A DNA stretch of 42,754 nucleotides from contig JAFSYY010000030.1 of the NCBI GenBank assembly GCA_017455845.1, positions 1 through 42,754 on the forward strand. Reading direction: 5' to 3'. Source of the stretch: Prevotella sp. (lineage in GTDB: Bacteria > Bacteroidota > Bacteroidia > Bacteroidales > Bacteroidaceae). Both the position numbers and the translations under genes were made by a program. Numbering within the stretch: the first letter of the stretch is position 1; each line of letters begins with the position of its first letter. Below the pieces are notes generated by a model. The model had not been told where the DNA came from and made no database searches. It worked only from the letters and a program-made list of their open reading frames with translations. Of the stretch, positions 7,035-34,800 are shown in pieces.

Positions 7035-7099
7035 TTTTTTGTAATAAATCTTAAATAATTAGCGGATTTTTTGGGGCAGTCGATATTTCCGGTGCATAC

Positions 7100-7330
7100 A
7101 GTCTAAATAGTGCGCAGCCGCTCCCCTCCCTTCCGCTCGACCGCTTGCGGGCGCTTGCTACCAGCGGGACGCAAGAAGGGGAGGGGTTGGGGTGGGGTCT
7201 GTATCTTACTGTTACTGAAGAGGTTAGTCACCCCACCCCTGCCGGCTTCGCCCCACCGTCGCTTTGCTCCCCAATTGCTCCCTCCTCGCAATTGCCTACA
7301 AGGGAGGGGAGTGCCATGCGGCGTCATGCA
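7100..7330 (+). repeat. Composite C/G-rich repeat (P2 plus part of P1), upstream copy
   Basis: The left half (about 7115-7190) is a hairpin-like block sharing its 20-nt loop, in inverted orientation, and its right arm with the hairpin upstream of sufC (13324-13403). The right half, 7195-7322, is a direct repeat of 8343-8472 (128 versus 130 bp, roughly ten differences by eye). It ends in the P1 core GAGTGCCATGCGGC. No coding potential is evident. Confidence 0.8.
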
Positions 7331-7353
7331 CCGGAAATATCGACTGCCTCCAA

Positions 7354-7371
7354 AACGGTCGTTAGACCGTT
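7354..7371 (+). repeat. Isolated GGTC-N4-GACC hairpin before the phased array
   Basis: AACGGTC (7354-7360) pairs perfectly with GACCGTT (7365-7371) around a 4-nt loop. It carries the same GGTC/GACC half-sites as the array that follows but a shorter centre, and it is out of phase with that array. Confidence 0.6.
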
Positions 7372-7395: not shown

Positions 7396-7667
7396 TGTCT
7401 TTAAAAGACCAAAACCGCATCCATATTCTGGTCACGCGATGACCAAAATGGCAACCTTGTTTTGGTCACGCGATGACCAAAATGGCATCCTTGTTTTGGT
7501 CACGCGATGACCAAAATGGCGACCGCATTTTGGTCACGTGATGACCAAGGCTTGGTCGTCGCGTGACCAAGCATCGGTCACAGCATGACCAGGCCTTGGT
7601 CGCAGCGTGACCAGGCCTTGGTCGCTGCATGACCACGCATCGGTCCGGAAACGACCTGATAGCGGTC
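7396..7667 (+). repeat. Phased array of GGTC-N7-GACC palindromes
   Basis: Nine complete 15-bp units GGTC-N7-GACC start at 7430, 7464, 7498, 7532, 7554, 7576, 7598, 7620 and 7642. The start-to-start distance is exactly 34 bp three times and then exactly 22 bp five times. A half-site GACC (7407-7410) lies one 34-bp step before, and a half-site GGTC (7664-7667) one 22-bp step after. Flanking arms change together: TTTTGGTC with GACCAAAA in the second to fourth units, and GCTTGGTC with GACCAAGC in the fifth. Neither 34 nor 22 is a multiple of three, which argues against coding. It may be an operator array or a string of RNA hairpins. Confidence 0.9.
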
Positions 7668-7703
7668 CTGAATAGGCTGCATATCATAAACAATTATAAA
7701 AAT

Positions 7704-7737: not shown

Positions 7738-7763
7738 GTAATTTTACCGCCAAATTATTGATT

Positions 7764-7846
7764 ACACAAATAATAGAAAATATAACACAAATAATAGAAA
7801 AAAGATTACACAAATACTAGAAAAAGATAACACAAATAATAGAAAT
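7764..7846 (+). repeat. AT-rich tandem array abutting the DUF6078 start codon
   Basis: Four copies of a unit containing ACACAAATAATAGAAA start at 7764, 7785, 7808 and 7830, a period of 21-23 bp (22 on average). The last copy runs into the start codon at 7845. A partial copy (ACACAAATAAT) occurs at about 8509, upstream of the lipoprotein gene. The array probably contains the leader of the DUF6078 gene. Confidence 0.8.
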
Positions 7847-8297
7847 GACGATGGAAACGAATAATGTGGCTATTGACATGCGGCAGGTGCCTGCGGGCTA
7901 CGTGTTATGCTTCAACGATGCATGCACCCGCCACGACGAGTGTCTGCGCTGGATAGCGGGCAGACAGATAGACAAGAAGATGACGATGGCGCAGACGGTG
8001 CTGCCTACCGTCCTGTCCAAAGCGCGATGCCCTTACTTCAGGAAGGCCGAGTTGATACGCATGGCATGGGGATTCGAAAAACTCTTTGCCGAAGTGAAGA
8101 GCAAGGACGAGAACAGTCTGCGCAACGCGATGAGGACTTATCTGGGGGGCAACGGCACCTATTCGCGCTATAAACTGGGTCGCAGGCTGCTCTCGCCGGA
8201 ACAACAGACGTATATCATCGACCTCTTCCGCGACAGGGGGTATACCGAGGGATTGGAGTTCGACCACTATGTCACTACCTACGACTTCGACCATTAG
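7845..8297 (+). CDS. DUF6078 family protein, function unknown
   Basis: A 150-residue soluble protein without a signal peptide or membrane helix. It has a cysteine-containing N-terminal part (GYVLCFNDACTRHDECLRW, then ARCPYFRKAEL), a basic middle (KDENSLRNAMRTYLGGNG) and an acidic-aromatic C-terminus (LSPEQQTYIIDLF...TTYDFDH). I recognise the general pattern as the Bacteroidota family DUF6078, from memory. ATGs at 7845 and 7851 are both possible starts. The gene stands alone: two phased repeat arrays lie upstream and a long direct repeat lies on either side. Nothing in the sequence shows its activity; the cysteines could bind metal. Confidence 0.7.
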   Translation: MTMETNNVAIDMRQVPAGYVLCFNDACTRHDECLRWIAGRQIDKKMTMAQTVLPTVLSKARCPYFRKAELIRMAWGFEKLFAEVKSKDENSLRNAMRTYLGGNGTYSRYKLGRRLLSPEQQTYIIDLFRDRGYTEGLEFDHYVTTYDFDH

Positions 8298-8334: not shown

Positions 8335-8511
8335 GCAGAGATGGGTCTGTATCTTCCTGCCACTGAGCAAGTTAGTCACCCCACCCCTACCCCGGCTTCG
8401 TCCCACCGTCGCTTTGCTCCCCAATTGCTCCCCCCTCGCAATTGCCTACATGGGAGGGGAGTGCCATGCGGCTTGCTCGCTGCGGTAGCAGGGGCTTTTT
8501 AAAGTAGACAC
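8335..8511 (+). repeat. Composite P2/P1 repeat, downstream copy
   Basis: 8343-8472 repeats 7195-7322 in direct orientation. It continues into a P1 half element whose inner core and outer end (GGGGCTTTTTAAAGTAGACA) lie at 8448-8509. The P1 end points towards the lipoprotein start at 8540, the same geometry as at the edge GH2 gene. The 8298-8539 spacer holds nothing else except a Shine-Dalgarno-like AAGGAG at 8527-8532. Confidence 0.85.
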
Positions 8512-8539
8512 AAATAATATTATAATAAGGAGAAAGAAG

Positions 8540-31877: not shown

Positions 31878-34800
31878 CTATGGTATGCGCAGCCAGAGGA
31901 GTTGTCCCGAAGGCATGTCCTGAGGCGTGAAGGAGCCTTGCAGACGTAAGGATTTCTGGTACGGTTTGATGTCGCCCCGCTTCATGTCGATGGTGAATAC
32001 CTGATAGTTGCCGGCAGGCACGTCGATGCTGGGCGAGGCTCCCAGAGGAAAGATAATAAAGCCTTTGTCCTTATGTCCTATGGCAACGCAGTCATGGCCT
32101 TCTACGGGTGTCATCATACAGACCTCTTTCAGGAAGACGGTCTGCCATTTGTCGGCATCGTTTCCGCCAATAGGGATGTTGGGCAGTGAACCGCCGGCCA
32201 AGAGTATGGCCCATCCGTAGTCGGGGTATTGCTGGGCGAAGAAGGTGACGGCCTTGTCCGGGTGGCGGTCGCGCATCTCCCTGACGGCCCGGTAAGCCTC
32301 GTTAAAGCCGGTCTTGCCCACCTTCATCTTGCGCATCCACTGCCGTGGGGCCATGCTCTTGCCGCCTTCTGGTGCCCAGAGGCCTTGTGTGTTATAGTGC
32401 CAGTAGCGGATGTCGATGATGTCTACCACCTTGCTGAGCACAGGGTCGGCGAGTATGCTGTCCTGCACGTCGCGGGTGCAACTCAGGGCTATCAGCGGGT
32501 GGCGGCCGGTCTCGGCCTCCCATTGGGCGATGGTCTCCAACCAGAACTTTGTGAAGTGATAGGGGCCGGTATATTCCGCACTGATAAGGTGCACGACGTT
32601 CGACTGGTCTTTCAGTTGGTCAAGACACATACGGATATACTGGCGGTGCAGGGGTTGTAGCACAGGATTCTGTTCGTTGTAGAACTGCTCTGCGAGGAAG
32701 ATACGCTTGTCGCCGGCGAATGGCACTGGCTCTGGGAATGGGTACTCTCCCTGCTCTCCTGTTGCAGTGGCAGAGTAGTTGATATTGTTTGCCGGGCGCC
32801 AGGGGCAGTCCACCCAGTGTGCACCAGCCTCAAGGATGTTATGCTGGAAATAGTGTTGGTTGAAAAGGAGTATCTGCTTGTCGGCGGCTTTAGAGGCAAA
32901 TTCGCTAAGCCGGCTCCAATACCATTGGTTGGGCTTCGTGAGGTCGTAGCGTGAGAGCCCGTCCCATGCTGTTCCCTGTCCTGAACGGCTGAACGGCTGT
33001 TCGTAGAATGGTGCCCATACGTCGCCGTCGGCTCTGCGCACCCGCTCATGGTCGGTGCGGCGCAGGTCGTACCACAGGCCGTAGTTATGGTCGAGCGAGG
33101 CATAGTGATGGTCGGCAAGAAACGTCACCACAGAGTCGATACGGTCTGTCCACCCCTTTCCTTCCCTGCCAGGCACAAAACGTGTGATGGCAGGCTTGGC
33201 CTCTTTCTCCGCAAAGTTGTCTTTCACCCTGCCGCTCCACCAGGGGATGCTGTATTGGTTGCCAGTGACGAGGCTGCCGTCGGCAGTCAGATGGCCCTCG
33301 GTGACAACGTAAGAGGTGAGAGGTGAGGGGTGAGGGGTGAGAGGTGAGGGGTAATCTCTCACCTCTTGCCCCTCACCTCTCACCCCTTCTCGTAAGTCTA
33401 TCCACTTCTCCATTGTCAGGCGGGGTGTGGTGAGCGATTCCTGCGCCATCTGCATGGCCTGTTCCGCCGTTGGCGAACTGGTGGCATTGGTGTTGCGGGG
33501 CAGGATGCAGGGGTCGAAAGGCAGTTTACCCAGGCGTTTCTCCAGTTGGTCGTAGAACAGGCTTCGCGGGCTTACGTGGTCGTTGCTGCTTGTCCATTCG
33601 CCATTGCCGGTGAGGGTGCCCCAGCATCCGTGTGCGCTGCTGCGGTTGTCGCTGTCGGGTGAATAGCACTCAATGGTTGAGGCCGTACATTGCCAGAACA
33701 TGGAGTTGGCTGTGTTCCATCCGGTGCCAAATTGAAACTGTTCGAGATTGGCGAAGCGCAGGTCATGGCCGTCGATATTCACGATGTCGAAGAGCAGCCC
33801 TGCCGCCCACGAGCCAATGCTGCCGCTGAATCCCAGCGACTCCTCGCCTTCGCATTGCACGAAGGCATTGGGGCCTGCGGCGCAGAAGCCTGCTGCAAAA
33901 TCATGGATGCCTTTACGCGAGATACACCGCTGGAAGAGCGTCTGCTGACCGCGTGTCAGAAACACCTGTCTGCGCCAGCCGCCTGTTTCAGAAACGGGCT
34001 CCTGGGCTATACAGTCCTCTACGGTGATGCGGCTGCAGTGCTTCTGCAGGTTTACTGCCGAGCCTGCCAGGTGGAAGAAACGGATGCCGCGCACCCAGCA
34101 GTCGCGTGCGTTTTCAACGTAGATGCCGTCCCAACAGTGGTCCTCGTCCTTGGGATTGGTTGAGAGGATGGCCGCCTTTAGGGTCATGTTCTCGATGCCG
34201 CACTCCGTGATTTCTCCTTCCTCCTTTCTCCTTTTCTCCTTACTCCTTTCTTCTTTCTCCTTTCTCCTTTCTTCTTTTAAGATGTAAGCGCCGCCAAAGG
34301 CACGGCTGATTGTCGTTGTGACGGGCGCATCCAGGGTGATGGTATCACCCATGACGGCCGTGACCGTCCTGTCCCAGGTGATGTCGATGTCGGTAGGCTT
34401 CCAGCCGGTATAGTCGAGGCCGCCTCCGAAGTCGTTCATTTTCAGACTTTCTATCCACTCTTTGGTGCAAGGGCGCACTATGAGTATGCGTTCGCCTGCT
34501 GTCAACTTTCCGCCTTTTGTGGTCAGCACCGTGCTTCCGGCTGCTATTGTATTGTCAGCCACTTGGATGGTGTCCCCGCACCTCGCACCTCGTACCTCGC
34601 ACCTCGGTTCCAGATATATCATCGCACCTCGGTCTACTCCCTGCTTCAAGAGCGTGGTCTTGCCATGGCCTAAGCCCCGCAGCACGATGCCTGAGGCCGT
34701 GATGCGCAATGGCTTGTTGATGGTGAAGATGCCTTCGCCCAGAGCGATAGCCCCCCTATGCCCCTTGGCATCAGCCTTTAGTGTGGCCACATGGTCGATG

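What the first reader, a model, noticed from the sequence alone, without database searches (positions are those of the whole stretch)
7396..7667. Strictly phased palindrome array (GGTC-N7-GACC) with a switch from 34-bp to 22-bp period
Nine complete palindromes start at intervals of exactly 34, 34, 34, 22, 22, 22, 22 and 22 bp, and degenerate half-sites continue the phase at both ends. Flanking bases change in a compensating way (TTTT/AAAA, GCTT/AAGC), which suggests that base pairing or dyad recognition is selected. The periods are not codon multiples. I know of no described element with this form. It could be a multimeric repressor or nucleoprotein array (22 bp is about two helix turns) or an RNA of serial hairpins.
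Basis: seen in the sequence. Interest (0 to 1): 0.78.

Follow-up and report, generated by a model that had tools for sequence, protein, structure and literature searches.

The report
Phased DNA arrays paired with DUF6078
Gut and rumen bacteria carry an unstudied small protein gene that often sits beside a strictly spaced array of mirror-image DNA words, and copies of that array are scattered over many of the same genomes, which suggests an unrecognised DNA-binding protein with its own matching DNA code.

Summary
The array is real and as described: nine GGTC-N7-GACC units at steps 34,34,34,22,22,22,22,22. It is one of at least seven in this Prevotellaceae genome; similar 22-bp arrays are dispersed in related genomes. 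The period switch is explained: the array is a chain of 5-nt half-sites (GGTCA/TGACC) about 11 bp apart, and the 34-bp units hold one extra, mostly degenerate half-site, so phase is kept. Half-sites are not conserved by base-pair compensation, so RNA hairpins are disfavoured. DUF6078, next door in the window, is the only gene family found beside three or more of 56 arrays. Conversely, 75 of 114 DUF6078 loci have a 22-bp-period array on a flank, against 0 of 129 control pieces. Their half-sites differ, correlate modestly with protein similarity, and genomes with a TTACC or TTCCC array beside DUF6078 (7 of 7, 9 of 9) have more of that kind elsewhere. Best reading: DUF6078 is an undescribed sequence-specific protein that binds its own phased array cooperatively, at its gene and at dispersed sites. 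Against it: 9 of 13 Prevotellaceae genomes picked for GGTCA arrays showed no DUF6078 with such an array beside it.

The parts
7396..7668 (.). whole array: 10 palindrome units (9 exact, 1 with one mismatch) plus a terminal half-site at 7664-7668
7396..7546 (.). 34-bp-period part: inverted half-site pairs with one extra half-site position between them
7520..7524 (.). extra half-site CGACC of the last 34-bp unit; the same position in the other units (7418, 7452, 7486) is degenerate (CATCC, CAACC, CATCC)
   Evidence: read, one-mismatch site; the sister array on contig C122 has exact TGACC at this position
7532..7656 (.). 22-bp-period part: half-sites alternate GGTCA and TGACC (some with one mismatch) at 10 and 12 bp steps
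7845..8297 (+). DUF6078 gene, 150 aa; the protein family linked to such arrays
   Evidence: Pfam PF19555 E 1.2e-40; linkage
7760..7845 (+). A-rich direct repeat of period 22 (ACACAAATAATAGAAA), ending at the DUF6078 start codon; low self-complementarity, role unknown

Best explanation
The array is the cognate DNA element of the DUF6078 protein encoded next to it. Shown here: 5-nt half-sites alternate in orientation at 10 and 12 bp steps; DUF6078 genes are often paired with arrays of the same 22-bp period but different half-sites; half-site similarity correlates with protein similarity; and genomes with a TTACC or TTCCC array beside DUF6078 carry further arrays of that type elsewhere. Inferred: the half-sites fall on one face of the helix; DUF6078, a roughly 145-aa protein with four invariant cysteines (possibly a metal site), binds one half-site per subunit as dimers and spreads cooperatively along the array; by binding beside its own gene it regulates itself, and by binding the dispersed arrays it affects the genes there (or is kept for that reason); gene plus array can change genomic position as a compact unit.
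For: Linkage. All-against-all blastp of ORFs within 1.5 kb of 56 Prevotellaceae arrays found DUF6078 (and its own antisense frame) as the only family at three or more arrays (4 arrays, 4 genomes). 5 of 15 DUF6078 matches in genomes chosen for arrays have a GGTCA array beside them. Reverse test: a flank with 22-bp periodicity in 75 of 114 DUF6078 loci (56 of 88 among loci taken without regard to arrays) against 0 of 129 control pieces and 0 of 1125 shuffles. Of 83 flanks (of 225) passing at any lag, 68 have 22 and 6 have 11 as best lag. Dyad symmetry p<=0.05 in 61 of 75. Co-variation: Spearman -0.228 between protein identity and motif distance over 66 non-redundant gene-array pairs, 0 of 999 permutations as extreme. 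Same-kind dispersal: TTACC 7 of 7 genomes with an adjacent copy against 12 of 143 others; TTCCC 9 of 9 against 29 of 141. Breadth: 22 is the best lag of the whole locus in 8 of 8 loci read outside the window's genus (four plasmid records of Bacteroides, Parabacteroides and Treponema; four loci of two family and one class relative). Half-site spacing in 61 GGTCA arrays: 221 at 12 and 206 at 10 bp.
Against: Of the 13 Prevotellaceae genomes picked for GGTCA arrays, 9 showed no DUF6078 with a GGTCA array beside it; the one with most arrays (RUG11225, G153, 75 paired-unit matches) has a single detected DUF6078 whose array has another half-site (L261). Most of these are MAGs, probably incomplete, but H. 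mizrahii and P. lacticifex are named strains. 39 of 114 DUF6078 loci do not pass the 22-bp threshold (two of these pass at lag 11). G012 (99% complete) has 13 TTACC matches and no DUF6078 match; 12 and 29 genomes have TTACC or TTCCC matches without a read adjacent copy (not every DUF6078 locus was read). The co-variation is modest and could come from shared descent alone. Neighbours of the own-genome arrays show no obvious common function (10 proteins).
Confidence: 0.6

Rival explanations
1. REP-like selfish element: the arrays are non-autonomous repeats copied around the genome by a mobility factor (DUF6078 itself or an unseen enzyme), and DUF6078 plus array is the parent element, like a REPtron.
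For: Dispersed arrays with a linked gene and several paralogues in some genomes. Patchy presence (88 of 150). Absent behind the permease gene in 27 of 27 relatives with enough downstream sequence. Nucleotide homology between some related loci ends near the gene and array edges, e.g. L328/L332. Arrays without a matching DUF6078 in some genomes would fit orphan copies.
Against: No known catalytic motif stands out among the invariant columns (C22, C27, C33, C62, G76, Y106, G112, G132). Y1 transposase was not found in 6 of 12 array genomes (it was in the other 6, weakly in the own genome). No terminal repeats or target duplications were demonstrated. A fixed period with changing half-sites is more expected of a binding array.
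Confidence: 0.24
2. Another host protein binds the arrays, and DUF6078 is just one of the genes it controls.
For: Arrays exist in genomes where no DUF6078, or only DUF6078 with other half-sites, was detected (G012, G153).
Against: DUF6078 is the only family found at three or more of 56 arrays, and half-site type co-varies with DUF6078 sequence.
Confidence: 0.1
3. Serial RNA hairpins or terminators.
For: Each unit can form a short stem; 59 of the 75 DUF6078-linked arrays lie 3' of the gene.
Against: No compensated changes in 115 interior units and inner pairs less complementary than chance. Arrays also lie between divergent genes (16 of 61 called contexts, imperfect gene calls). No Rfam match at gathering threshold in the window.
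Confidence: 0.04
4. Neutral tandem repeats made by slippage.
For: Neighbouring units are often near copies of each other.
Against: The same period recurs over many different unit sequences; half-sites are nearly invariant while spacers vary.
Confidence: 0.02

Closest known systems
REP/BIME/REPIN palindromes with RAYT transposases (REPtrons; PMC3733652: passages; PMC3116915: search listing only)
   Same: dispersed extragenic palindromic repeats, some in arrays, with a linked gene that is often flanked by them
   Different: DUF6078 is a different protein family, no match to the Y1 transposase model in 8 proteins scanned; Y1_Tnp not found in 6 of 12 array genomes; no tag common to the arrays; strict 22-bp phase; half-site changes from locus to locus
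BrickBuilt MITE of Porphyromonas gingivalis (PMC4596501: abstract and passages)
   Same: dispersed intergenic elements of Bacteroidota holding a short tandem repeat (23 nt)
   Different: BrickBuilt has leader and tail with small inverted-repeat ends, and its abstract names no paired protein; here the unit is a phased palindrome linked to DUF6078
Arrays for oligomeric ribbon-helix-helix proteins (ParR on 11-bp repeats, omega on heptads, MetJ on met boxes; all recalled; ParR papers seen only in a search listing)
   Same: short half-sites in phased tandem arrays bound cooperatively; specificity differs between relatives
   Different: DUF6078 matches no such family in Pfam; arrays are dispersed over chromosomes and are not a plasmid centromere or a single operator

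Membership tests
REP / RAYT (REPtron) | linked gene is a Y1 (HUH) tyrosine transposase | tested here: not met
   the linked gene matches DUF6078 and no transposase model in 8 proteins scanned; Y1_Tnp not found in 6 of 12 array genomes
REP / RAYT (REPtron) | common GTAG or CGTC tag at the palindrome foot | tested here: not met
   by eye only, in the listing of array consensus units (76 rows, one void); half-sites include GGTCA, TTACC, TTCCC, GTTTC, with no tag common to them
REP / RAYT (REPtron) | dispersed copies linked to the gene | tested here: met
CRISPR array | repeats separated by unique spacers of similar length to the repeats | tested here: not met
   spacers are 5 and 7 nt in the 22-bp arrays; cas genes were not searched for as such
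DUF6078 (PF19555) | profile score over the gathering cut-off | tested here: met
   139.6 bits against 27
Ribbon-helix-helix operator arrays | RHH fold of the binding protein | not testable with these tools
   no Pfam match over cut-off besides DUF6078 (best other MinC_N_1, E 0.026, below cut-off), no PDB sequence match; structure prediction off
BrickBuilt MITE | leader and tail with terminal inverted repeats around the tandem repeat | not tested
   no systematic search for array termini was made; some own-genome arrays look alike at their ends by eye

The most novel reading that the evidence does not exclude
DUF6078 founds a new class of DNA-binding protein that assembles along one face of the helix on arrays of half-sites about 11 bp apart, has a fast-changing recognition code, and forms with its array a mobile, self-addressing pair that rewires or marks many intergenic sites of its host genome.
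Probability: 0.33. Interest if true: 0.93.

Novelty: categorically new. Interest (0 to 1): 0.85.

Why it matters
DUF6078 is present in 88 of 150 genomes of the window's genus searched, in some in several copies, and no paper of the held library contains the names DUF6078 or PF19555 (preprints and most subscription papers are not held). If it binds its array, each gene comes with its own target sequence written beside it, so a protein-DNA recognition code could be read from many natural pairs at once, and a layer of genome organisation or regulation in gut and rumen bacteria becomes testable. If instead the pair is selfish, it is a REP-like system without the known transposase.

Tried and rejected
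RNA hairpin reading: rejected on the compensation counts.

RAYT as mobiliser: Y1_Tnp not found in 6 of 12 array genomes, found in the other 6. Known RNA families: none at gathering threshold in the window. Phage origin: no PHROG match for four DUF6078 proteins; three profile-based scans of viral contigs found no relative, though tblastn found DUF6078 in 5 phage-labelled gut contigs without annotation and 4 plasmid records. Common function of neighbours of own-genome arrays: none evident in 10 proteins scanned. Known fold: no PDB sequence relative.

GGTCA-type 22-bp arrays in Nocardioides aequoreus, a Thiotrichaceae and a Phycisphaerae genome come with no DUF6078 match; I treat them as separate. 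In one search the reversed-pattern control also hit 7 of 150 genomes once each, so single hits there (G023, G045, G129) may be chance. An early 22-bp count of 76 fell to 75 when N was excluded. At the laxer threshold of 36 one control piece had 22 as best lag, against 71 flanks. One search ended in an error after printing; only its listing is used. The Mantel test dropped 9 of 75 arrays with proteins at least 80% identical to another. In one search only the read DUF6078 loci count as adjacent, so some genomes in the 'without' group may have an unread adjacent copy; its genome totals were copied by me from the tables. The 60 loci are the next best-scoring rows, passing over rows already in hand and one row (G074:C109); they are not a random sample. 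In one search two of 29 relatives had too little downstream sequence (168 and 697 nt) and are left out of the 27; only the 30 best of 260 matching genomes gave loci. One search printed only its first 45 rows.

Full report
Observation. The window holds nine exact GGTC-N7-GACC units at 7430, 7464, 7498, 7532, 7554, 7576, 7598, 7620 and 7642, steps 34,34,34,22,22,22,22,22, with a one-mismatch unit at 7396 and a further half-site at 7664. Single palindromes are not in excess, but the chain is: 200 order-2 Markov copies of the window gave a longest chain of 1 against 9.

Anatomy. Read as 5-nt half-sites, the array is GGTCA (5) TGACC (7) GGTCA (5) TGACC and so on. Consecutive exact half-sites in 61 Prevotellaceae arrays lie 12 bp apart across the 7-nt linker (221 cases) and 10 bp apart across the 5-nt spacer (206); most of the rest are 22 or 24 bp, as expected when the site between is degenerate. 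The average step of 11 bp would place them on one face of the helix (inference). The 34-bp unit is 22+12: an extra half-site position in direct orientation at +22. In the window it is degenerate (CATCC, CAACC, CATCC, CGACC at 7418, 7452, 7486, 7520); in the sister array on contig C122 of the same genome it is exact TGACC. So the period switch adds a half-site without breaking phase.

Base pairing is not what is selected. In 115 interior units with exact neighbours 22 bp away on both sides and no filter on the unit itself, there were 21 one-sided changes at the five half-site pairs (18 at pair 5, 3 at pair 4), 0 Watson-Crick-restoring double changes and 1 non-pairing double change. The next inner pair is Watson-Crick in 17 units against 43.6 in shuffles. 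This fits independent half-sites read by a protein.

A dispersed family. The own genome (68% complete, 124 contigs) has arrays on seven contigs: 34 paired-unit matches, 0 with the reversed pattern. In the genus 8 of 150 genomes matched, three of them by a single hit, while the reversed-pattern control hit 7 of 150 once each. Among named genomes, arrays occur in Prevotella and Prevotellaceae MAGs, Hallella multisaccharivorax DSM 17128, H. mizrahii and Prevotella lacticifex. H. multisaccharivorax has at least 14 sites with two or more units over one 3.3-Mb scaffold; MAG RUG11225 has 75 paired-unit matches with up to one mismatch.

Linked gene. All-against-all blastp of ORFs within 1.5 kb of 56 arrays gave one family at three or more arrays: DUF6078 (with its own antisense frame), at 4 arrays of 4 genomes; other families reached two. 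Of 15 DUF6078 matches found in 10 of 16 genomes picked for arrays, 5 (one a fragment of 38 profile positions) have a GGTCA array beside them, on either side of the gene. These 5 lie in 4 of the 13 Prevotellaceae genomes; the other 9 showed none, among them RUG11225, whose one detected DUF6078 has an array with another half-site (L261). So most GGTCA arrays are not beside DUF6078.

The reverse test. I read 114 DUF6078 loci: 28 given, 60 next best-scoring rows, 9 plasmid or phage-labelled records, and 17 from array genomes or earlier calls. On 400-nt flanks, a self-match at lag 22 of at least 38 of 66 occurred in 75 of 114 loci, in 0 of 129 pieces about 800 nt or more away and in 0 of 1125 shuffles. 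Restricted to the 88 loci taken without regard to arrays it is 56 of 88; of 83 flanks (of 225) passing at any lag from 10 to 40, 68 have 22 and 6 have 11 as best lag. 59 arrays lie 3' and 16 lie 5' of the gene, median gap 45 nt; 61 of 75 have dyad symmetry at p<=0.05 against column permutations. Five loci of one clade (L273, L274, L275, L277, L278) show short 11-bp direct repeats of 1.9 to 4.6 copies instead. In the plasmid records of Bacteroides finegoldii, Parabacteroides distasonis (two) and Treponema saccharophilum (pTS1) and in four loci of three more distant Bacteroidota genomes, 22 is the best lag of the whole locus in 8 of 8, beside the gene; two of the plasmid loci fall below the 38 threshold on the 400-nt flanks.

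Matching code. The half-sites differ between loci (TTACC, TTCCC, GTTTC, GTCCC, TTGTAC and others). Over 66 non-redundant gene-array pairs, protein identity and motif distance correlate at Spearman -0.228, a modest value, with 0 of 999 permutations as extreme. TTACC arrays occur in 19 of 150 genus genomes and TTCCC arrays in 38 of 150 (up to one mismatch), with no reversed-pattern hit. The genomes with a read DUF6078-adjacent copy have further copies of that kind: 7 of 7 and 9 of 9, against 12 of 143 and 29 of 141 genomes without a read adjacent copy (Fisher 1.7e-7 and 2.0e-6).

Mobility. DUF6078 is patchy in the genus (88 of 150) and rare across the phylum (4 of 296 including the own genome). 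The window's DUF6078 and array are missing behind the permease gene in the 27 relatives read that have enough downstream sequence, among them G110, which has a 73% identical DUF6078 elsewhere. In some pairs of related loci nucleotide homology ends close to the gene or array (L274/L278 from -19 to +3; L328/L332 from -5 to +56; L284/L328 from -18 to +111), while others share more than 1 kb of flank (L330/L331, L373/L380). This shows turnover, not a mechanism.

The protein. About 145 aa, with C22, C27, C33, C62, G76, Y106, G112 and G132 invariant in 33 sequences. No other Pfam family reaches its cut-off in 8 proteins scanned (best other MinC_N_1, E 0.026), no PHROG matches 4, and no PDB sequence relative is credible (best E 0.13). 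The names DUF6078 and PF19555 occur in 0 of 5.39 million held papers; most subscription papers and preprints are not covered.

Mechanism. Shown: spacing, half-site conservation, linkage, co-variation, same-kind dispersal for two half-site types. The contexts of GGTCA and TTACC arrays are mixed: of 61 called contexts 36 tandem, 16 divergent and 9 convergent, with a simple gene caller that missed some genes and a low array threshold. Ten neighbours in the own genome share no evident function. A REP-like selfish pair therefore remains a serious rival and is not exclusive with binding.

Comparison with known kinds. It works like a phased operator or iteron array (recalled), and its distribution recalls REP elements and their transposases (PMC3733652, passages read). 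It fails the defining REP/RAYT features tested (Y1 transposase, common tag). BrickBuilt (PMC4596501, abstract and passages) is a Bacteroidota element with a 23-nt tandem repeat but with leader and tail; its termini test was not done here.

Noticed in passing
window 7068-7355 and 8343-8472: A 288-bp stretch with 30-nt inverted ends (93% complementary) lies just before the array; its inner part recurs at 8343-8472 behind DUF6078 (96% over 81 nt and 86% over 49 nt).
   Followed up: partly
window 7760-7845: A-rich direct repeat of period 22 (ACACAAATAATAGAAA) ending at the DUF6078 start codon; a related single copy lies at 8500-8523.
   Followed up: partly
window 14789, 14876, 19369, 23008, 23551, 33312, 34211, 34577, 36162: 9 of 12 tandem repeats of 7 nt lie inside long open frames (for example TTTCTCC x 9.4 at 34211-34277), where a change of one unit would shift the frame.
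   Followed up: partly
L033, L056, L077 (Nocardioides aequoreus), L035 (Thiotrichaceae), L081, L134, L142 (Phycisphaerae): 22-bp palindrome arrays with GTCA half-sites also occur in unrelated phyla, at many sites in Nocardioides aequoreus, with no DUF6078 match there.
   Followed up: partly
L273, L274, L275, L277, L278: Loci of one DUF6078 clade have short 11-bp direct repeats (1.9 to 4.6 copies) near the gene instead of 22-bp palindromes.
   Followed up: partly
G012 (L405): A 99% complete genome with 13 TTACC paired-unit matches but no DUF6078 match.
   Followed up: no
L165, L167, L169, L170, L178, L182, L183, L185: IMG/VR contigs hold 22- to 23-bp GGTCA palindrome arrays, several with C-rich linkers, that look unrelated to the Prevotella ones.
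   Followed up: no
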